DNA of 64,000 bases. It comes from Cloacibacillus evryensis DSM 19522. Its GTDB lineage: Bacteria; Synergistota; Synergistia; Synergistales; Synergistaceae. The stretch lies in the NCBI RefSeq assembly GCF_000585335.1, contig NZ_KK073872.1, forward strand, positions 502,001 to 566,000, given 5' to 3'. This document shows, one piece after another, positions 4,628 through 53,112 of the stretch (positions are counted from its first letter, which is position 1; every line of letters begins with the position of its first letter). Both the position numbers and the translations under genes were made by a program. The notes under the pieces were generated by a model. That model was not told where the DNA came from. It made no database searches and saw only the letters and a program-made list of their open reading frames with translations.

Positions 4628-5146
4628 TTAAGCGGCCTCCTCAGAGTTTGGACCTTTGTTAAAAAACTCTTTTAGCATTACTGCGAAAACCGCCGACTGT
4701 ATGACGGTTATGATTGCAAAGCTGAGCGTTATTGCGAAATATGGGATCACCATCGGGATGCCAAGCGCCGGTGACGCCTGCTGCGAGATCAGCTGCATAC
4801 GCAGCATGTCTATGGAGGTGTAGAAGATAATGGCGGAAAATGTGATTACTATCGCCTTTGCGACGAGCTGGACGAATATTTTCGGTTTGCCGGTCAGTTT
4901 ATCGGTCAATGCGGTCACCGATATCTGCGTGCCGTCGCGAAGCCCTGCCTCCGCCGCTAGGAAGGCCATGTAGATCATGCAGAAGGTCGCGAGTTCCTCG
5001 AACCACGACATGCTTAGCTTGAATATATTTCTGTTGACGACCTGCAGGAAGAAAGAAACGACCATCACGCCAAACGCGATGACGAGGATGCCGTCTTCTA
5101 TCGTCTGAAGCGAATTGAGTATCTTGTTTAGTTTTTTGCTGGGCAT
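4628..5146 (-). CDS. dctQ: TRAP transporter small permease subunit (DctQ-like)
   Basis: A 172-residue protein with four predicted membrane helices and the usual DctQ landmarks: a hydrophobic first helix, the WFEELATFCMIYMAFL segment and the aspartate-containing RDGTQISV loop. It pairs with DctM to form the membrane complex of a TRAP transporter. GGGGGAG precedes the ATG. The gene lies between dctP and dctM in the usual operon order. Confidence 0.9.
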   Translation of the reverse strand: MPSKKLNKILNSLQTIEDGILVIAFGVMVVSFFLQVVNRNIFKLSMSWFEELATFCMIYMAFLAAEAGLRDGTQISVTALTDKLTGKPKIFVQLVAKAIVITFSAIIFYTSIDMLRMQLISQQASPALGIPMVIPYFAITLSFAIITVIQSAVFAVMLKEFFNKGPNSEEAA

Positions 5147-5240
5147 TTTATCGCTCCCCCGTTTTCAAAGCTGCCTGGTTTTGAATGAAAAGGCGCCGTC
5201 CGCAGCGCCTCTTCATTCTCTATTAATCTGTGGGAAAAGT

Positions 5241-6230
5241 TTACTTGTTCTCTTTTATAGCCTTCTCGACGAGAGCTACGTACTTCGGATCCATTTTTTT
5301 CAAAGCTTCTGCCTTTTTAGGAGCGTAGAGCTTCTGGAGCTGGGCGCGGTCGATGTCATAGATATTTACGCCAAGTTCTTTGAGCTTCTTTGTCGCGTCG
5401 TTGTTGGCTTCGATAAGGTATTTGCGCTGTATCTTGCAGCCCTTGGCCACAGCCTTAGCGAATGGTTCGCGCAGATCCGCCGGGATCTTGTTCCACGCGG
5501 CCATTGAAACGCCGACGGGGATATATACGAATGCGTGGTGCGATCTTGTTACGTGGCGCGTAACCTCGTAATAACCGGAGGCGATGCAGTTGCTTATCGC
5601 GTTTTCCGCCGCGTCTATCGTACCCTGCTGCAGCGCCGGGAGAACGTCGTTATAGGCCATCGGTGTAGCGATGGCGCCGAATGAATTGAAGGCCGCCATG
5701 TGGTACTCGTTCTGCATTGTGCGGATCTTAAGTCCCTTAAAATCCTTGACCTCTTTGACAGGGCGTGTTGCGAATACGTCGCGGAAACCGGACTCCATCC
5801 AGCCGAGGAGCTTGATGTTGAGCTTCTTTTCACACTCGGCGGCTATCAGCTTGCCCATTTCGCCGTCGACGCAGGCGTTGGCCTGCCTGTCGTTGTCCCA
5901 AAGGAAAGCGATATCGAGTATCTTCATCTGAGGAATGAAGTTCGCAAGCACGGAGCTTGCTGCGGACCACATATCAAGAGTGCCCATCATCGCTGCTTCG
6001 ACCATCTCTCGCTCATTGCCGAGCTGTCCGCTCGGGAAGACCGCTATCTCCACGCGCCCGTTCGTCGCCTTGCGTACTTCGTCCGCGATCGCCTTCGCGC
6101 CCTTGTAATAGTTGCTTGAATCAGGGTCGTTGATCCCAAGCTTCAGCTTGATCGGCTCTGCCGCCGATGCCGCGCCGGCAAAGCAAAATACGAGTGATGC
6201 AACCATAAGAACCGCCAGTAACTTCTTCAT
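5241..6230 (-). CDS. dctP: TRAP transporter solute-binding protein (DctP-like)
   Basis: The 329-residue product starts with a clear signal peptide (MKKLLAVLMV, cleavage near AASAAEP) and continues as a DctP-family periplasmic binding protein. The FKGLKIRTMQNEYH segment carries the conserved arginine that binds the substrate carboxylate in this family. AGGGGAC precedes the ATG at 6230; the reading frame continues upstream but without a better start. As first gene of the minus-strand operon it delivers substrate to DctQM. The ligand is unknown; a uronate or ketogluconate is suggested by the neighbouring enzymes. Confidence 0.92.
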   Translation of the reverse strand: MKKLLAVLMVASLVFCFAGAASAAEPIKLKLGINDPDSSNYYKGAKAIADEVRKATNGRVEIAVFPSGQLGNEREMVEAAMMGTLDMWSAASSVLANFIPQMKILDIAFLWDNDRQANACVDGEMGKLIAAECEKKLNIKLLGWMESGFRDVFATRPVKEVKDFKGLKIRTMQNEYHMAAFNSFGAIATPMAYNDVLPALQQGTIDAAENAISNCIASGYYEVTRHVTRSHHAFVYIPVGVSMAAWNKIPADLREPFAKAVAKGCKIQRKYLIEANNDATKKLKELGVNIYDIDRAQLQKLYAPKKAEALKKMDPKYVALVEKAIKENK

Positions 6231-24965: not shown

Positions 24966-25051
24966 GGTAGGATGGCCGAGTGGTCAAAGGCAACAGACTG
25001 TAAATCTGTCGGCGAGAGCCTACGTTGGTTCAAATCCAACTCCTACCACCA
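24966..25051 (+). tRNA. tRNA-Tyr (GTA), copy 1
   Basis: An 86-nt class II tRNA with a GGTAGGA/TCCTACC acceptor stem, anticodon GTA at 25000-25002 in a CTGTAAA loop, a long variable arm, and encoded CCA. It is identical to copy 2 at 27748-27833. Confidence 0.97.
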
Positions 25052-27747: not shown

Positions 27748-27833
27748 GGTAGGATGGCCGAGTGGTCAAAGGCAACAGACTGTAAATCTGTCGGCGAGAG
27801 CCTACGTTGGTTCAAATCCAACTCCTACCACCA
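27748..27833 (+). tRNA. tRNA-Tyr (GTA), copy 2
   Basis: Identical in all 86 positions to copy 1, including the encoded CCA. The two copies lie 2.8 kb apart with similar promoters, indicating a duplication. Confidence 0.97.
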
Positions 27834-42098: not shown

Positions 42099-42863
42099 AT
42101 GGATGTTACGCTTGAACGGAGCACATGCGAGCTTTACCGGACTATATATGCCGATCCTCCGTGGATGGAGCGCGGCGGCGGAAAGATTAAACGTGGAGCT
42201 GACAGGCATTATGCCCTTATGAAGACCACGGAGATAGCTTCTTTTCTGCATGACACGGGGCTGGAAAGTTTTATCGCACCCAACGCACATCTTTATCTTT
42301 GGGTGACGAATAATTTTTTGACGGACGGTTTTCGCGTCATGGATGCTTGGGGTTTCAGTTTTAAGACAGTCATCACTTGGTGCAAGGAAGGGAATATAGG
42401 TCTTGGGCAATATTTCCGAGGCCGCACGGAGCATTGTCTTTTCGGGGTGCGCGGGATGCTTCCGTATAAGGTTAAGGACGGCAAACGGCAACAGGGCGTT
42501 ACCGGATTTACAGCGCCGCGCGGAAAGCACAGCGAGAAGCCTCTTTTTATGCGGAGGATGGTCGAAAAGGTTTCGTATCCGCCGTATTTGGAGCTTTTCG
42601 CGCGGCAGCGGTTCGAGGGATGGGATTGTTATGGCACAAAGGAGTGGTGTGAGATGAGATGTGTGGACGACTGCGAGTTTTGCGCCGGTATCGACTGGAG
42701 CGGGAGGAGTCCCGCGGTCGAATGTACCTGCAGCGGCTGCGAGGGGCGGAGTATCGATCCGTTTGCGTATTGTTATTTCGGAAAGAAGAGGTCGGTTGAA
42801 GAGGTAAGGCCGGTAGATCCCCGTCAGAGCAGCCTTTTTGATTCGCAGGGGGCGCTTTTTTGA
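42099..42863 (+). CDS. MT-A70-family DNA N6-adenine methyltransferase
   Basis: 254 residues with TIYADPPW (DPPW at 19-22), HLYLWVTNNFL and the KHSEKP segment of MT-A70 enzymes. A C-terminal Cys-rich extension (CVDDCEFCAG, CTCSGCEG) may bind zinc. Third methylase of the module. Confidence 0.88.
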   Translation: MDVTLERSTCELYRTIYADPPWMERGGGKIKRGADRHYALMKTTEIASFLHDTGLESFIAPNAHLYLWVTNNFLTDGFRVMDAWGFSFKTVITWCKEGNIGLGQYFRGRTEHCLFGVRGMLPYKVKDGKRQQGVTGFTAPRGKHSEKPLFMRRMVEKVSYPPYLELFARQRFEGWDCYGTKEWCEMRCVDDCEFCAGIDWSGRSPAVECTCSGCEGRSIDPFAYCYFGKKRSVEEVRPVDPRQSSLFDSQGALF

Positions 42864-44407: not shown

Positions 44408-44473
44408 ACAACGCACATTAACAATCTCTGCTATGTGGGAGCTTTTATCGGTTCGAGCGTAGGAGGGGAGGGG

Positions 44474-45103
44474 ATGCCAGAGGAGGTGAACCTTGTGAGG
44501 GGGAAAAAACTGACGCCGAAGCAGGCCCGCTTTGTCGAAGAGTACCTGGTTGATCTCAATGCCACCAATGCCGCTAAAAGAGCAGGTTACGCCGCGAAAA
44601 CCTCATATTCCATCGGACAGCGCCTGTTGAAAAATGTTGAAGTACAAAACGCTATCAACGTAGCGCAAAGACGGCGCTCGATCCGTACTGAAATTAGTCA
44701 GGACGCCGTGATTAAGGAGATTGCCAAGATTGCTTTTGGCGATCCGCGAGCTGTGATGAGTTGGGGGCCTGACGGGGTGAAGCTCAAGGACAGCAAAGAA
44801 ATCTCCGATGACGCAGCGGCATTTGTTGCGGAGGTATCCGAATCGACTACGGAGAGTGGTGGTAGTCTGCGGCTTAAAACGAACGACAAGCTCAAGGCGC
44901 TTGAATTACTGGGGAAGCATTTTGGCATGTTCAAGGAGCAACAGCCTGTCCAACAGAGTACAAATAACCTGATTTTCGCTGACTCAAATGCTCTGATTTA
45001 TCAGGCCGTGCTGGATACAGTGCGCGACACGGCCCGGGCTGTGCGCGAGGGGGCCGTTCTTAGTGGTGATCCCGTCCGAGAGGGCGATATAACGGAGGTA
45101 TGA
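44474..45103 (+). CDS. terS: Terminase small subunit
   Basis: 209 residues. The N-terminal HTH region (LTPKQARFVEEYLVDLNATN, AAKRAGYAAKTSYSIGQRLL) and FGDPRAVMSWG are typical of the Terminase_2 type. It recognises phage DNA and recruits the large subunit for packaging. A very strong GGAGGGGAGGGG lies before ATG 44474. Confidence 0.9.
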   Translation: MPEEVNLVRGKKLTPKQARFVEEYLVDLNATNAAKRAGYAAKTSYSIGQRLLKNVEVQNAINVAQRRRSIRTEISQDAVIKEIAKIAFGDPRAVMSWGPDGVKLKDSKEISDDAAAFVAEVSESTTESGGSLRLKTNDKLKALELLGKHFGMFKEQQPVQQSTNNLIFADSNALIYQAVLDTVRDTARAVREGAVLSGDPVREGDITEV

Positions 45104-45106
45104 ACA

Positions 45107-45493
45107 ATGAAGAGGTTGAGGGCGGTACCGACGACGGTTCGGTTTTTTAGGGATAAGGATAGACGCTGTGTCCGTGTCGATTTTAGAGGTCATGCGATTG
45201 CGGATGTCTCTACTAAATACGAGGAGGATGCGCTGCTAGACGGAGTGTGTGCCTGTGCCGGTGTTTCGCTGCTGAGCAGTTTTATGGAGATACTTGTCAT
45301 GTTAGGGGGCGCTGAACGGTATGAGGTGAGATCTTTCAACGACGGACCGGAGGAGGTTCCGGTGAAGTCTTTTAGGTGGGAGGCGGACGCGGAAGCTATG
45401 CAGATCCCTGTTGAAGCGCTTTACCGGACGGTACAGGCGTTGTCGGTAGAGTTCTATCCTTTTGTGCATGTCCAGGATGTTTTGGGCGTTTAG
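45107..45493 (+). CDS. Prp-like (YsxB family) cysteine protease, divergent
   Basis: 128 residues. RVDFRGHA (His29) and DGVCACAGVSLLSSFMEIL (Cys48) copy the two catalytic motifs of Prp, with about six extra residues between them compared with the canonical member at 50655-51032. The C-terminal VEFYPFVHVQDV also fits. It sits after terS. It may be a second protease or a regulator of the first; activity is uncertain. Confidence 0.6.
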   Translation: MKRLRAVPTTVRFFRDKDRRCVRVDFRGHAIADVSTKYEEDALLDGVCACAGVSLLSSFMEILVMLGGAERYEVRSFNDGPEEVPVKSFRWEADAEAMQIPVEALYRTVQALSVEFYPFVHVQDVLGV

Positions 45494-45523
45494 CGTTGTT
45501 TTGTTTGGAGGAGGTTGCGAGGC

Positions 45524-46027
45524 ATGTGTAAGTATGTAAAGAGACCGGTGGTAGTTGAGGCTGTCAAGTTTGAGGACAGCACAGAGTGTTTTGATAAGCT
45601 GCAGGCGCTGGGACTTGATCCTGTGCGCGTTAATTACGCCGATAAGGATAATCCGGTGATCAAGATCGATACGCTGGAAGGTGAAATGACAGGGCAAGTC
45701 GGCGATTACGTTATCCGCGGCGTGAACGGTGAATTTTACCCCTGCAAACCAGATATTTTTGAAAAGACGTATGCAAAAGAGGGCTCGTATCCTACGAAAC
45801 ATCTTTCTTTTGGGGCGGCATTTGATTACCTCAAAATCGGCAACGTGGATTACATGCGCCTTCCGCAGTGGAAAGAGGATGTGAAGATAAGAATCCAGCG
45901 CCCGGATGAAAACTCGAAAATGAGGGCGCCATATCTCTATGTTGAATCCCGTTTCGGGCGTGTGCCGTGGAAGGAAACGATGATCGAGCTGTTTTCGGAT
46001 GAATGGGAGGTCGGGTTTGATGAATAG
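45524..46027 (+). CDS. Fusion of a common phage N-terminal domain with a Tad2-like (DUF2829) domain
   Basis: 167 residues; GGAGGAGG at 45507-45514 sets ATG 45524. Residues 1-83 resemble the widespread phage domain with VGDYVIRGVNGEFYPCKPDI. Residues 93-165 match DUF2829: LSFGAAFDYLKIGN, MRLPQW, MRAPYLYVE and GRVPWKETMIELFSDEWEVG. Thoeris anti-defence protein Tad2 belongs to this family and sequesters the cyclic nucleotide signal of Thoeris. Anti-defence activity here is inferred. It lies oddly between terminase subunit genes. Confidence 0.72.
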   Translation: MCKYVKRPVVVEAVKFEDSTECFDKLQALGLDPVRVNYADKDNPVIKIDTLEGEMTGQVGDYVIRGVNGEFYPCKPDIFEKTYAKEGSYPTKHLSFGAAFDYLKIGNVDYMRLPQWKEDVKIRIQRPDENSKMRAPYLYVESRFGRVPWKETMIELFSDEWEVGFDE

Positions 46028-46232
46028 CGTAGACCAAATTATCGAGGCTTATAAGCGTGGGCTGGAGGATGGACGGCGCGGTAGTGACAACAAGAGACCG
46101 GCAGATCCTTATGGCGGGTGGATACGTCGTCAACAGTCTGGAAATTCTACCGGCAATTCTCCGGTAAATACGCCTATGGTCACTTGTGAGTTGGAGCGGC
46201 AGACGCCTTCGTGTTCCGGGGATGTGCGATAA
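46020..46232 (+). CDS. Small hypothetical phage protein
   Basis: 70 residues (MNSVDQIIEAYKRGLEDGRR then a polar tail), starting eight bases inside the upstream gene. No family recognised. Confidence 0.55.
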   Translation: MNSVDQIIEAYKRGLEDGRRGSDNKRPADPYGGWIRRQQSGNSTGNSPVNTPMVTCELERQTPSCSGDVR

Positions 46233-46266
46233 AAAAAGGTTCATTGAAGGCTAGGAGGTGTCCGCA

Positions 46267-48276
46267 TTGAATGATGTGTCTGATGTGGAGGCCGTCCGCC
46301 GGATGGCGGAGGATGAGACGCGGTGCGCATCATCGTTGGTGGCATTTCGGAAACAGTACCTGGCAGCACCCGATGATGTAGATGCGGCCCCATTTCATGA
46401 GGAGTGGAGCCGCCTTTTGTTGTATGGCCGCGAGCATGAGGCAATAGAAGGCTATCGTTCTTCGGCGAAGGATCAGTATGTTTTTCAGGCGTATATTATG
46501 TATTGCCTCAAGTATCCCACTTATGAACGGAGCTATATCGTCATTATCTGCGCCACGGCGGAGATGGCGGCGCGGAAGCTGTTGGCGATCACGCGCCGCT
46601 TCCAGGCCCCGGACTGTGCCTCGATGCGTGTTCATCTGGAGAAGGTCGTCGAGGATTCCGGCAAGGCTTTTCAGGCGCTGTATCGTGACGGCATGCAGGT
46701 CAGGGTTGAGGCGTTCGGCAAAGGCGGCGCTATTCGCGGCCTCGTCTGGGGGGCGAAGCGCCCGGATATTATCATCATCAATGATCCGCAGGATCTAGAA
46801 GACATGAACAGCCCGGCCACGATGGAGAAGGATTGGGATTGGTTCACATCGGACGTTATTTTCCTTGGGAACAGCACGCGGATTTTTCTCATCGGCAACA
46901 ATCTTGGTGCGCTCTGTATTATTGAGCGTGTCTTTCAGTTTGCCAGGCAGCTTAATTTCGACTGCCGCCGGTATCCCGTCCTGGACAAAAATGACCGCAG
47001 CACCTGGCCGCAGAAGGACCCCACGGAGAAGATGGTCGCCGAGCGGGAATCGTTCCGCGCTCTGGGTAAGATCGATTCCTGGATGCGCGAGAAGATGTGT
47101 CAGGTGATGGCGCCGGAGTCGAGGCCGTTGAAGCCGGAGCTGTACGGCTATTACGACCCGTTTCAGCTGGATTTGTCGGGCAGCGTTGTTAAGATTGTGC
47201 TGGACCCAGCGATCAGCGAAAAAAAGGATTCTGACGAGTCGGTTATCACGGCCTGCGCGATTCGTGACGACGGGCATAAGGATATTTTGGAGATGGACGT
47301 TGACCGGCGTAATCCGTATAAGATCGTGGACGCGCTTTTCCGCATGGTGGCGCGCTGGAATCCCGTAATGGTTGGCGTGGAGGCGATCGCCTATCAGGAG
47401 ATGTTGGCGCAGGAGATTGAGCGGCAGCAGATCAAGAGAGGTATATATTTTAACGTTGTGCGTGTGCGCGGTATGCGCGGCCGCGCGAAGACGTCGAAGG
47501 AGCAGAAGATCCGTATGCGCCTGCAGCCGCAGATGGCCGTGGGGGCGATTCGGCTGCCCTCCGGTGCTGGCTGGGTACCTAAGCTGCTGCAGCAGACACA
47601 GGAGTTCCCTTATGGTGCCCACGACGATATGTTGGATACGCTCGCCATGCTGGACGACGTGCGCGAGGATATTCTTGTGCCGAATTTCGACCAGGCCGCC
47701 TGTGTCTGCGGCGAGTTTCCGCTTCCAAAGAACTGGCCGTTCTGGTGCTCTATTGTGGCCGACGTCACGGGCGAGTGCGTGATGCTTTTCATGTCCTGTT
47801 CGCCGGAGGGCAGGCTTTTTATCACGGATCAGATTTTTATACGCGGCACCCCCGAGGCGTTGTACCGCCGTTATCTGGGGGTGATGGGATCTCGGCAGCC
47901 GTTGATGACGGTAGCGCCGGCGGTGATGTTCAAGGATACGCCGGTTTCCCGCGAGGTGTGGGCGGACAGTTACCGCGGCGCGGGGTTCAGGCTGTCGAGT
48001 GCGCCGGATGATTACGCGTCGATGTTGACGCATTTGAATCAGTCGTTCGCCGTCCCCTATGCCGGGTCGCCGCCGCATTTGCAGATTTTCCCGCGGTGCA
48101 AACGGCTGATTTGGGAGCTGTATCACGCGGTCTCCGGCGAGCAAAAGCAGCCCGACCGTAAGAGTATTCAGGCGCTTATGCTGCTGCTTTCGTGCGGACC
48201 GAAGTGGCGCGATATGGCCACGATGCCGCTGCGAAGCGGACGTGCGGTGAATTATCCGCCGCGCGACGTGCCGTAG
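46267..48276 (+). CDS. terL: Terminase large subunit
   Basis: 669 residues from TTG 46267 (AGGAGG at 46252-46257). The N-terminal part is an ATPase-like domain without a textbook Walker A (IVIICATAEMAARKLL) but with IIIINDPQDLED as Walker B-like strand. The nuclease domain shows VKIVLDPAISEKKDSDESV, GVEAIAY and HDDMLDTLAML. About 200 further C-terminal residues are unusual. It cuts and pumps DNA into proheads. Confidence 0.88.
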   Translation: MNDVSDVEAVRRMAEDETRCASSLVAFRKQYLAAPDDVDAAPFHEEWSRLLLYGREHEAIEGYRSSAKDQYVFQAYIMYCLKYPTYERSYIVIICATAEMAARKLLAITRRFQAPDCASMRVHLEKVVEDSGKAFQALYRDGMQVRVEAFGKGGAIRGLVWGAKRPDIIIINDPQDLEDMNSPATMEKDWDWFTSDVIFLGNSTRIFLIGNNLGALCIIERVFQFARQLNFDCRRYPVLDKNDRSTWPQKDPTEKMVAERESFRALGKIDSWMREKMCQVMAPESRPLKPELYGYYDPFQLDLSGSVVKIVLDPAISEKKDSDESVITACAIRDDGHKDILEMDVDRRNPYKIVDALFRMVARWNPVMVGVEAIAYQEMLAQEIERQQIKRGIYFNVVRVRGMRGRAKTSKEQKIRMRLQPQMAVGAIRLPSGAGWVPKLLQQTQEFPYGAHDDMLDTLAMLDDVREDILVPNFDQAACVCGEFPLPKNWPFWCSIVADVTGECVMLFMSCSPEGRLFITDQIFIRGTPEALYRRYLGVMGSRQPLMTVAPAVMFKDTPVSREVWADSYRGAGFRLSSAPDDYASMLTHLNQSFAVPYAGSPPHLQIFPRCKRLIWELYHAVSGEQKQPDRKSIQALMLLLSCGPKWRDMATMPLRSGRAVNYPPRDVP

Positions 48277-48293: not shown

Positions 48294-50519
48294 TTGGCTG
48301 TTTATGAGGATGGTACAGCGCCGCAACTGCCCGAAACGGGACAGTCGCAGCAGGACGGAGAGGGAAAGAAGCAGCGAGCGAATTTGAAGCAGATGGCGCT
48401 GCGGGTGGTGAAGAGCGATATTTCCACCGCGAAGTCCGCCAGTGACGCTGAGCAGTCGAAGCGCACGCGGTTTTATAGTCTTTACCGCGCCCGCGGAGAT
48501 GAGGGGAAGAGCGAGCGTTCGCACAGGAGCACGTTCACTTCGTCCGATGTGATGAATTGTATCGAGTGGATCATGCCGGATATGATGAAGGCTTTTGCCG
48601 GCAGTCGTAAGGTGATCGCGGTGGTTCCTCGCGGCGGCGAGGATGTAAAGAAGGCCGAGAAGATAGAGAAGCTACTTAACTGGCAGTTTATGCACCAGTG
48701 TCAGGGATTCCTTACTTTGCAGGCGTGGATCAAGGCGGCGCTGGTATACGGCATCGGCCACCTCAAGACGGGCTGGGAGGAGCAGTACGCGCGGAAGGGG
48801 TTCGCGCAGCCGGAGGTCATCGAGCCTGATTTTATGCAGATGGTAGAGGACGATTCTATTGAATCGCTCTCTTATCTGGACAGCTACGAGGTTCCGGTAC
48901 CGGCACAGCAGGCCCGTGGGATGCCAAACGCCGCCTCTTACGGCTTTTCACCGGCACAGGTGGAGATGATGCGCGTCTATACGGACGTGCAGGGAGAGCA
49001 GAAGATCAAGACTTATTCCGGCCCGAAGCTGGAGGTTATACCGCCCGAGGATTTTCTGATCGACCCCGAGGCGAAGGACGTGGACAGCGCCCGTTTCGTG
49101 ATTCACCGCGTCATGCGTACTATCTCTTATCTGCGTGAGAAGGAGCGCGACGGGATTTACGCGAATATCGACCGGGTGGTTCAGCTGTCGGGAGAGGGCA
49201 ATAACGGCGATTATGACAGCACGGAGGAGGTTGCGCGCCTGCAGGATTCTGCTTCTTATTCCGCTATGGGATATACGGACGACAACGAGGCGCAGCAGAT
49301 CGGCCGCCGTAAGGTGGATGTGTTCGAGTGGTGGGGAGAGTTGGATGTCGAGGGAGACGGGCGTACGGAGAGTTATCTTGTGGTGGTCTGTAAGAATACG
49401 ATCATCCGCATGGAGCGCAACCCGTATGCGCACGGCAAGTCTCCATTCGTCGATTTGCTGCCGATTCCCGATATTTTCAGTTACGAGGGTATCGGCTACG
49501 CGGAGCTGGCGGGGCCGCATCAGGAGGTCAAGACGGCTGTTATTAAGCAGCTGCTGGATAATGCGTCGTTCACGAATAATCAGATGTGGGAGGTGGATGA
49601 GAACGCCGGCGTCGATGTGGACGCGCTGGCGAATCCTTTTCCCGGCAAGGTGGTGTTCACGAACCGGCTCGGCGGCTTTAAGGCGATCACTCCGGCGCAG
49701 CTCGACGGTTCCTCTTACAACCTGATCGAGTTCTCGCAGGGGCAGCTTGAGCAGCTTACGGGGGTTACTCGCTATAACCAGGGGCTTGACGCTAATTCGC
49801 TGAATAAGACGGCGACCGGCATCTCCGCCATTATGGACGCCTCGTCGAAGCGCAAGGAGTTGATCGCGCGCACGATCGCCGAGACTGGTCTGCGGAAACT
49901 CTACCTGAAGATGCTGCAGCTCGACCAGCAGTTTATAGACCAGAATATCGTGATCCGACTGTTCAACGCGCCGCTGGAGATTTCTCCCGACGATCTGGCG
50001 GGGAATTTCGATGTCTCGGTGGATATCGGCAGCGCGGTGACGGACGACGATACGGAGGTGCGGCAGCTGTTCATGATGGTTCAGCAGTACCCGATGTTAC
50101 AGCAGCTTGGCATTATGCGGCCGGGAAATGTGTTCACGATCTGTAAGAAGGTCCTCGATATTTGGGGATATAAGAATACGGAGATGTATTTGTCCGACCC
50201 GCAGGAGACGGAAACGGCACGGCAGGCGATGGTCGCCATCGCCCGTCTTGCGCAGTTTGTGCAGGGTACGGGGCAGGTCCCGCCCCTGCAGGTGATTGCA
50301 GAGGTATTACAGGCGGCCTATGGGGCGCTTGCGAAAATAGCGGGGCCAGGCCCCGGAGGAGGAATCGTAAATGGAGAAGACGGAGCACCAGCGCAGGCTG
50401 GAGGCGGCGCGCCGGGACATGATGGTAAGTTTGTACCCTCTGTTGTCGCGTCTCGATATGGAGGTGCTGGTGAAGCTGGAGGCGGTTTACCAGCAGGAGG
50501 CTCACAACCAGCTTTATAA
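48294..50519 (+). CDS. Portal protein (podovirus-like)
   Basis: 741 residues from TTG 48294. Length and segments such as RSTFTSSDVMNCIEWIMPDM, GPHQEVKTAVIKQLLDN and TATGISAIMDASSKRKELIA fit large P22-type portals forming the dodecameric DNA channel. The final 50 residues are Gly/Ala/Pro-rich and overlap the next gene in another frame. Confidence 0.88.
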   Translation: MAVYEDGTAPQLPETGQSQQDGEGKKQRANLKQMALRVVKSDISTAKSASDAEQSKRTRFYSLYRARGDEGKSERSHRSTFTSSDVMNCIEWIMPDMMKAFAGSRKVIAVVPRGGEDVKKAEKIEKLLNWQFMHQCQGFLTLQAWIKAALVYGIGHLKTGWEEQYARKGFAQPEVIEPDFMQMVEDDSIESLSYLDSYEVPVPAQQARGMPNAASYGFSPAQVEMMRVYTDVQGEQKIKTYSGPKLEVIPPEDFLIDPEAKDVDSARFVIHRVMRTISYLREKERDGIYANIDRVVQLSGEGNNGDYDSTEEVARLQDSASYSAMGYTDDNEAQQIGRRKVDVFEWWGELDVEGDGRTESYLVVVCKNTIIRMERNPYAHGKSPFVDLLPIPDIFSYEGIGYAELAGPHQEVKTAVIKQLLDNASFTNNQMWEVDENAGVDVDALANPFPGKVVFTNRLGGFKAITPAQLDGSSYNLIEFSQGQLEQLTGVTRYNQGLDANSLNKTATGISAIMDASSKRKELIARTIAETGLRKLYLKMLQLDQQFIDQNIVIRLFNAPLEISPDDLAGNFDVSVDIGSAVTDDDTEVRQLFMMVQQYPMLQQLGIMRPGNVFTICKKVLDIWGYKNTEMYLSDPQETETARQAMVAIARLAQFVQGTGQVPPLQVIAEVLQAAYGALAKIAGPGPGGGIVNGEDGAPAQAGGGAPGHDGKFVPSVVASRYGGAGEAGGGLPAGGSQPAL

Positions 50520-52068: not shown

Positions 52069-53112
52069 ATGTTTAATGTTGCAAGAAGGCTCAATCTGAG
52101 CTTTTTCGAGGTGAATACGCGGAATTTCCCGACGGAGATTAAGAATTTTTATGACCGCGTGGCGTTGACGACGGCGCTTCCGTTTCTGCCTTTCCGAAAG
52201 TGGGGACAGAAGCGGCCGCTGCCTAAGAACAAGGGCAAGGTGATATCTTTCCGCCGCTGGGGCGTGCTGGCTCCGGCCACTACGCCGCTGACAGAGGGTA
52301 TCACTCCGACCGGCAGCTCTCTGGACTATGAGACGATCACAGCCACGGTACAGCAGTACGGTGACTGGATACCTCTCACGGACCAGGTGCAGGATCTCGC
52401 CATTGACGCTGTGCTGACGCAGGTTGTCCAGCAGCTGGGCGAGCAGCAGGGCGAGACGCTGGCGATTTTAGCCCGCAACCAGATGGTCGCGGGGGTAAAT
52501 GTCAGCTACGCGAATAAGGTCACGTCGAGGTCGGAGGTGGTGGCGAGGGTCAGCGCCGACGACTATGACCGGATCATCCTGAAGCTGAAGATGAAGCTGG
52601 CCAAGCGCCACACCGAGATCATCATGCCTACGGTCAAGATAGAGACAAAACCTATTCGCGCCGCCTATATCGCCATCATCAGCCCTTACACGACTGTGGA
52701 GTTGGAGAGGCAGCTTGGTAACGGTTATGTCCCTGTAGCGAATTATGCCAGCGGCGTCGGCGTCATGGAGGGCGAGGTTGGCAGTTACAAGGAGATCCGC
52801 TTTATCGAAACGACGCACGCGATGGTTTACGAGGACGCCGGCGGCAATGTGGCGGACGGCTGTAAGAGCACCAGCGGTACAAAGACGGACGTCTATGCCG
52901 ACCTGATTTTTGGCAAGGAGGCCTATGGCGAGACGATGGTTGGTGGTAAAGACACTCACACCGTCATCATCAAAATGCATAAGGACGACGATACCAGCGA
53001 CACGAGCGACCCGCTGAATCAGCGCGGTACCGCGGGCTGGAAGGATTATTATGTCGCGAAGATTTTAAACGACGACTGGATCGTGCGCTATGAACACGCC
53101 GTCAAGTCGTAG
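52069..53112 (+). CDS. Major capsid protein, N4-gp56 family
   Basis: 347 residues with NKGKVISFRRWGVLAPATTP, LTEGITPTGSSLDYETITAT and VQQYGDWIPLTDQVQDLAID, as in the N4-gp56 capsid family. The N-terminus MFNVARRLNLSFFEVNTR contains LNLSFFE, matching the Prp cleavage motif seen in the scaffold. GGAGGAGG-like site precedes the ATG. Confidence 0.92.
   Translation: MFNVARRLNLSFFEVNTRNFPTEIKNFYDRVALTTALPFLPFRKWGQKRPLPKNKGKVISFRRWGVLAPATTPLTEGITPTGSSLDYETITATVQQYGDWIPLTDQVQDLAIDAVLTQVVQQLGEQQGETLAILARNQMVAGVNVSYANKVTSRSEVVARVSADDYDRIILKLKMKLAKRHTEIIMPTVKIETKPIRAAYIAIISPYTTVELERQLGNGYVPVANYASGVGVMEGEVGSYKEIRFIETTHAMVYEDAGGNVADGCKSTSGTKTDVYADLIFGKEAYGETMVGGKDTHTVIIKMHKDDDTSDTSDPLNQRGTAGWKDYYVAKILNDDWIVRYEHAVKS

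What the first reader, a model, noticed from the sequence alone, without database searches (positions are those of the whole stretch)
45524..46027. Tad2-like anti-Thoeris domain fused to a phage structural-region protein
The C-terminal half matches DUF2829, the family of Tad2 that captures the Thoeris signalling nucleotide. It is fused to a common phage domain of unknown function and located between terminase genes, not among early anti-defence genes. The fusion suggests a tethered sponge or a second function.
Basis: partly seen in the sequence, partly recalled or inferred. Interest (0 to 1): 0.78.

Follow-up and report, generated by a model that had tools for sequence, protein, structure and literature searches.

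The report
Swappable phage protein with Tad2-like half
A prophage gene between two DNA-packaging genes makes a two-part protein whose back half has the shape of a known phage "sponge" for bacterial alarm molecules, but with the ligand-contact motifs rewritten, and a related prophage has an unrelated back half in exactly that spot.

Summary
Window 45524-46027 encodes 167 aa. Residues 95-163 match Pfam Tad2-like (PF11195) above cut-off, and the predicted fold puts every solved Tad2 first. Residues 1-85 are a common phage module (phrog_419). The gene lies between TerS and TerL.

The fusion is not unique: 12 other proteins join the same N-module to canonical Tad2 domains. The head-module position is usual for both halves. 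The C-half belongs to a distinct 'RLPQW' subfamily in which the two pocket motifs of Tad2, GWNGK and SQTD, are replaced together by QW-x-x-D and TMIE while the rest of the scaffold is kept. The cyclic-dinucleotide insertion is missing. Thoeris ligands are therefore not supported; a re-specified nucleotide pocket is the better reading (inference).

New here: in a syntenic prophage of the same bacterial family (TerL 75%, portal 79%, N-module 72% identical) the C-half is an unrelated domain (PF21825), and homology resumes at the next gene. The locus is a platform with exchangeable C-terminal modules. N-module relatives also sit on DHH proteins beside TIR genes.

Verdict: new variant of a known kind; ligand and function untested.

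The parts
45507..45514 (+). Shine-Dalgarno-like GGAGGAGG, 9 nt before the ATG
   Evidence: sequence read directly
45524..46027 (+). gene for the 167-aa two-domain protein
45524..45778 (+). N-terminal module, residues 1-85 (phrog_419; PGDYG-like)
   Evidence: phrog_419 E 1.5e-28; alignment A7; stand-alone in many phages
45806..46012 (+). C-terminal Tad2-like domain, residues 95-163 (PF11195), 'RLPQW' subfamily
45860..45880 (+). LPQWKED: replaces the GWNGK loop (beta1-beta2) of canonical Tad2
45968..45988 (+). WKETMIE: replaces W-L-A-S-Q-T-D (beta4-alpha3 loop and helix alpha3) of canonical Tad2
46020..46232 (+). 70-aa ORF (MNSVDQIIEAYKRGLEDGRR...), overlaps the stop of the fusion gene by 8 nt; conserved in the syntenic prophage, where homology resumes after the swapped domain
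44435..45103 (+). terminase small subunit
   Evidence: phrog_51 2.2e-41
45107..45493 (+). 128-aa ORF of unknown function between TerS and the fusion gene; absent at this place in the syntenic prophage L412
   Evidence: no PHROG match
46258..48276 (+). terminase large subunit
   Evidence: phrog_38 2.3e-64
48294..50519 (+). portal protein
   Evidence: phrog_1216 1.1e-122
52069..53112 (+). major head protein
   Evidence: phrog_1357 3.5e-69

Best explanation
The gene encodes a two-module accessory protein of a temperate phage, probably co-transcribed with the packaging/head genes. The C-half is a Tad2-fold domain that most likely still binds and sequesters a nucleotide-type molecule, probably an immune second messenger, but with a re-specified pocket, so that its ligand is probably not one of the known Thoeris signals. 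The N-half is a widespread phage module that carries exchangeable C-terminal domains at this locus; it probably supplies localisation, assembly or a second nucleotide-related activity. Shown: both domains, the Tad2 fold (predicted), loss of the canonical pocket motifs, recurrent fusion, head-module location, and domain exchange at the locus. Inferred: oligomerisation, ligand binding, the ligand's nature, counter-defence, and timing with capsid production.
For: Family and fold; profile-profile match of the RLPQW subfamily to canonical Tad2 domains, 96% probability, E 2e-9. Coordinated pocket rewriting on a kept scaffold: stand-alone relatives in Aeromonas, Acinetobacter, Mycobacterium and other phages have GWNGxG plus WLASQTD together with the same QxPDxxSKMTxPY...VPW core; the RLPQW members keep the core and change both pocket motifs, and Enterococcus phages show intermediates (PTQVE). 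Strong constraint: 21 invariant columns in 50 members. Swap to an unrelated C-half in a syntenic prophage. The N-module is repeatedly joined to canonical Tad2 domains and elsewhere to nucleotide-related enzymes: a nucleotide pyrophosphohydrolase in phrog_4159, a DHH protein beside TIR genes. A Tad2 relative lies directly upstream of a nicotinamide phosphoribosyltransferase gene in an Aeromonas phage. Capsid-triggered Thoeris makes a head-linked sponge timely (PMC12578639).
Against: No binding or protection data. Of the canonical near-invariant positions of the two motif regions only the tryptophans are kept exactly, so ligand binding may be lost altogether. The relatives' strong conservation is partly a search artefact, because loci were found through exact conserved peptides; it is also more than one expects of an arms-race protein. 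The host has no TIR match.
Confidence: 0.5

Rival explanations
1. It is a working anti-Thoeris Tad2: despite the changed motifs it captures gcADPR, cADPR isomers or His-ADPR, and the N-half merely tethers it.
For: PF11195 match and fold; known Tad2 proteins already differ in ligand (SPO1 Tad2 gcADPR, Myroides Tad2 His-ADPR); other N-module fusions carry canonical pockets; some Synergistaceae have TIR genes.
Against: GWNGK to QWKED and SQTD to TMIE; cyclic-dinucleotide insertion missing (role of the insertion from PMC12043709); no TIR gene found in the host.
Confidence: 0.13
2. It is a head or packaging accessory protein. The Tad2 fold was recruited for assembly or packaging and no longer has any immune role.
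For: Both halves typically lie beside portal, terminase, protease, scaffold and capsid genes; strong conservation; weak fold similarity of the C-half to a phage 812 neck chain (Z 5.0) and of the N-half to the phage L decoration protein (Z 4.0).
Against: Patchy presence: the C-half was found in 1 of 185 genomes searched in the phylum. The C-half is exchanged for an unrelated domain while TerS, TerL and portal stay. Stand-alone relatives in lytic phages lie among nucleotide-metabolism genes instead. Both fold similarities are in the range of common arrangements.
Confidence: 0.2
3. It binds a metabolic nucleotide (dNTP, NAD-related or guanine nucleotide) to tune phage nucleotide pools rather than immunity.
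For: Stand-alone relatives next to dUTPase and guanylate kinase, ribonucleotide reductase and nicotinamide phosphoribosyltransferase; N-module with a nucleotide pyrophosphohydrolase.
Against: The RLPQW genes sampled lie mostly in the head module, not in a nucleotide module; characterised Tad2 proteins bind immune signals (PMC12043709).
Confidence: 0.17

Closest known systems
Tad2 (SPO1 gp34.65, Myroides ModTad2, HgmTad2/AcrIIA7, SptTad2; PF11195/DUF2829)
   Same: Pfam family, predicted fold, the conserved tryptophans, FGxA start of the first helix; SptTad2 shares a QRP-D-x-x-SK stretch (FQRPGDELSKT against IQRPDENSKM)
   Different: GWNGK and SQTD motifs replaced, cyclic-dinucleotide insertion missing, fused N-module
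N-module + canonical Tad2 fusions in other phages and prophages (L073, L109, L126, L182, L189, L190, L191, L198, L202, L249; L104 and L207 incomplete)
   Same: N-module and domain order
   Different: their Tad2 half has the canonical GWNG loop; those complete through the C-terminus also keep a canonical or near-canonical W-x-x-S-x-x-D helix motif
Stand-alone RLPQW Tad2-like genes, e.g. Latilactobacillus phage TMW 1.1381 P1 (between TerS and TerL)
   Same: C-half about 70% identical; same position between the terminase genes
   Different: no N-module
Syntenic N-module protein in a Synergistaceae prophage (L412:5111-5572)
   Same: N-half 72% identical, same locus, same neighbours
   Different: C-half is PF21825 (crAss001_48), unrelated to Tad2
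phrog_872 / phrog_1048 phage proteins
   Same: other N-domains or a tandem Tad2-like domain before an RLPQW domain
   Different: N-domain not shown to be homologous to phrog_419

Membership tests
Tad2-like family PF11195 | Pfam profile match above the curated cut-off | tested here: met
   28.8 and 31.2 bits, cut-off 25
Tad2-like family PF11195 | Tad2 fold | tested here: met
   predicted model; all nine Tad2/AcrIIA7 entries at ranks 1-9, Z 7.3-8.9; first non-Tad2 row Z 4.2
Tad2 anti-Thoeris sponge | pocket motifs shared by the characterised members (GWNGK loop; SQTD helix) | tested here: not met
   QWKED and TMIE in their place; only the tryptophans kept exactly. That these elements line the pocket is taken from PMC12043709; contact residues could not be computed here
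Tad2 anti-Thoeris sponge | insertion between beta2 and beta5 used for cyclic dinucleotides (present in HgmTad2 and SptTad2) | tested here: not met
   only about 3 residues between SKM and PYLYV
Tad2 anti-Thoeris sponge | homotetramer with pockets shared between protomers | not testable with these tools
   no complex prediction available
Tad2 anti-Thoeris sponge | binds gcADPR/cADPR/His-ADPR and protects phage from Thoeris | not testable with these tools
   needs a binding assay and plaque assay
phrog_419 module | profile match over the N-half | tested here: met
   101.2 bits, residues 1-85
PGDYG (PF14083) | Pfam match above cut-off | tested here: inconclusive
   no match for the window protein up to E 1; two N-module relatives match below the cut-off

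The most novel reading that the evidence does not exclude
The phrog_419 N-module is itself an immune-signal-handling or docking domain, and the TerS-TerL locus is a cassette where phages exchange signal-neutralising C-domains (Tad2-like, PF21825, and others), expressed together with the capsid protein that triggers TIR defence. The RLPQW pocket would then answer a TIR- or NAD-derived signal not yet known.
Probability: 0.15. Interest if true: 0.8.

Novelty: new variant of a known kind. Interest (0 to 1): 0.48.

Why it matters
Tad2-family genes are named after anti-Thoeris activity. A large, conserved subfamily with both pocket motifs rewritten warns against transferring that function by family name, and points to a possible new ligand. 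A locus where the C-terminal domain is exchanged while N-module and neighbours stay gives a way to find further counter-defence domains, with PF21825 as the first candidate. The N-module on DHH proteins beside TIR genes suggests a testable link to TIR signalling.

Tried and rejected
(1) Acb2/Tad1 hairpin (PF24729) as the C-half of the sibling prophage: no match (its control did not ring), while PF21825 fits at 70 bits. (2) Common origin of the phrog_872-type N-domain and the phrog_419 module: similar pattern, but hhalign gives 2% probability and E 0.023; not claimed. (3) Solved relatives by sequence: none for the whole protein; the A1 profile reaches SptTad2 only at E 0.008. (4) Neck protein of phage 812 (Z 5.0): one candidate gene tested, no PDB match, so the chain was not identified. 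(5) A combined alignment of N-only and C-only rows misaligned and was not used (A4). (6) Primary Tad2 structure papers are not held, so ligand contacts rest on a review. (7) PADLOC and NCBIfam: no match for the window protein. (8) No paper in the library names PGDYG or crAss001_48. (9) In one search the PDB look-up of the L412 C-part used a query typed with one wrong first residue; it found nothing and nothing rests on it.

Full report
OBSERVATION. The gene at 45524-46027 (+) starts at ATG 45524 after GGAGGAGG and encodes 167 aa. Residues 95-163 match PF11195 Tad2-like above the Pfam cut-off. Residues 1-85 match phrog_419, unknown function. Two AlphaFold models have mean pLDDT of about 91. In the VIA re-ranking of Foldseek's matches for the full-length model, all nine Tad2/AcrIIA7 entries listed take ranks 1-9 at Z 7.3-8.9, and the first non-Tad2 row, which aligns to the N-half, is at Z 4.2. 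For the C-domain alone the Tad2 entries score 7.1-8.5 and the next row 5.0. Foldseek alone ranks a Tad2 first, but at E 0.03. The gene lies between TerS and TerL, followed by portal and major head protein. The window belongs to a 3.49-Mb one-contig genome. I place it in Synergistaceae because a same-family genome (G032) gives the same match as a record titled Synergistaceae bacterium UBA6101; that is an inference.

THE C-HALF IS A DISTINCT TAD2 SUBFAMILY. Forty-nine relatives (59-72% identical to the window domain) share MRLPQW-x-x-DV-x-I-x-x-Q-x-PDExSKMTAPYLYVESRFGRVPWKETMIELFSE-x-W. They are homologous to canonical Tad2 domains (hhalign 96%, E 2e-9). Canonical members, including the solved ones, have R-x-GWNGKG and W-x-x-SQTD-x-x-AEDW. 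The window has QWKED and WKETMIELFSDEW. A review of the structures states that the pocket is lined by loop beta1-beta2, loop beta3-beta4, strand beta4, loop beta4-alpha3 and helix alpha3, and that an insertion between beta2 and beta5 serves cyclic dinucleotides (PMC12043709). By position, the first and second motifs fall in loop beta1-beta2 and in the beta4-alpha3 loop with helix alpha3, and the insertion is missing in the window protein.

INTERMEDIATES. tblastn with the C-half finds divergent stand-alone members in phages of Aeromonas, Acinetobacter, Mycobacterium and Enterococcus. Four of the divergent ones (L416-L419) combine canonical GWNGxG and WLASQTD with the core QxPDxxSKMTxPY...VPW of the RLPQW group; Enterococcus phages carry LPxW-x-x-DV with PTQVE, between ASQTD and ETMIE. 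The simplest reading is that the pocket was rewritten on a kept scaffold. Caveat: the loci behind one search were found through exact conserved peptides, so their high identity is partly selection.

FUSIONS RECUR. Over 314 loci, 13 different proteins join the phrog_419 module to a Tad2-like domain: twelve canonical (two of them cut by contig ends), and only the window's of the RLPQW type. RLPQW domains are also found behind other N-domains (L004, L009, L018, L021, L057), behind another Tad2-like domain (L017, L019, L032, L098), or alone. No second phrog_419+RLPQW fusion appeared among the kept hits of the viral and genome scans or in 185 genomes of the phylum; these are capped samples.

LOCATION. 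Latilactobacillus phage TMW 1.1381 P1 has a stand-alone RLPQW gene between TerS and TerL. A Streptococcus phage has a stand-alone N-module gene between a head morphogenesis gene and a capsid/scaffold gene. Among 115 neighbours of RLPQW genes, the named families met most often are portal, minor head, head protease, head morphogenesis, terminase, major head and scaffold; neighbours of N-module genes are head genes and lysis genes. Bacillus phage SpaA1 also carries a DUF2829 gene between minor head and scaffold genes (PMC3398947). In lytic phages the relatives lie beside dUTPase and guanylate kinase, ribonucleotide reductase, or nicotinamide phosphoribosyltransferase. So the location is typical and does not weaken a counter-defence role: staphylococcal Thoeris is activated by the major head protein, and streptococcal cyclases also recognise capsid proteins (PMC12578639).

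DOMAIN EXCHANGE AT THE LOCUS. A prophage in another genome of the same family (L412) has p43453 (65%), TerS (38%), the N-module (72%), TerL (75%) and portal (79%) in the same order. Its N-module protein (153 aa) continues as an unrelated domain. The two C-parts align no better than shuffled sequence (score 22 against mean 23.5), while the next small gene is again clearly homologous from its ATG on (141 against 24). The L412 C-part matches PF21825 crAss001_48 at 70.1 bits; the N-module protein of L142 also carries PF21825 (37.3 bits). The C-terminal domain is thus exchangeable at a fixed place.

THE N-HALF. Its relatives keep company with nucleotide enzymes: phrog_4159, named nucleotide pyrophosphohydrolase, begins with it. 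In Synergistaceae a DHH-family protein ends in N-module-like sequence (42.8 bits at 449-494 of P0005; a second, weak match follows) and stands next to a TIR-domain gene in five genomes (six pairs: G164, G170, G035, G027, and G165 twice). This suggests, but does not show, a link to nucleotide signalling. No solved relative of the N-half was found; the best fold similarities (Z about 4) are at noise level.

VERDICT. Member of the Tad2-like family by sequence and predicted fold; not shown, and by motif not expected, to be an anti-Thoeris Tad2. Most likely a re-specified nucleotide sponge on an exchangeable head-module platform (0.5). Rivals: head accessory (0.2), metabolic nucleotide binding (0.17), true anti-Thoeris activity (0.13).

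Noticed in passing
L320:2916-5947, L321:3223-6236 and G035:C125, G027:C16, G165:C161, G165:C132: A TIR-domain protein (with an apparent transmembrane segment and repeats in L320) lies next to a DHH-family protein whose C-terminus carries phrog_419-like sequence; seen in five Synergistaceae genomes. Possible TIR signalling module.
   Followed up: partly
L416:2483-4411 (Aeromonas phage Ahp1_CNU-2021): A Tad2 relative with canonical pocket motifs lies directly upstream of a nicotinamide phosphoribosyltransferase gene, as if in an anti-NAD-depletion cluster.
   Followed up: partly
L412:5111-5572: N-module fused to PF21825 (crAss001_48) at the syntenic TerS-TerL locus; L142 has the same pair. PF21825 may be a further counter-defence candidate.
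   Followed up: partly
L017, L019, L032, L098: Tandem Tad2-like domains: an N-terminal copy with LPSW/LPNW followed by an RLPQW copy.
   Followed up: no
L035:5947-6807 and near-identical loci: RLPQW Tad2-like domain at the start of a 287-aa protein with a long C-terminal part of unknown nature.
   Followed up: no
L214, L228, L229 about 4971-5582: N-module fused to a roughly 110-aa domain (HTFDELYEFRKMYNA...) not identified here.
   Followed up: no
PDB 8qkh chain S, by fold: Phage 812 neck chain resembles the C-domain model at Z 5.0, above the next unrelated rows; the gene behind the chain was not identified.
   Followed up: partly
window 24966-25051 and 27748-27833: Two tRNA-Tyr genes with the same anticodon 2.8 kb apart.
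   Followed up: no
window 42099-42863: DNA methyltransferase gene (phrog_359) just upstream of the packaging module.
   Followed up: no
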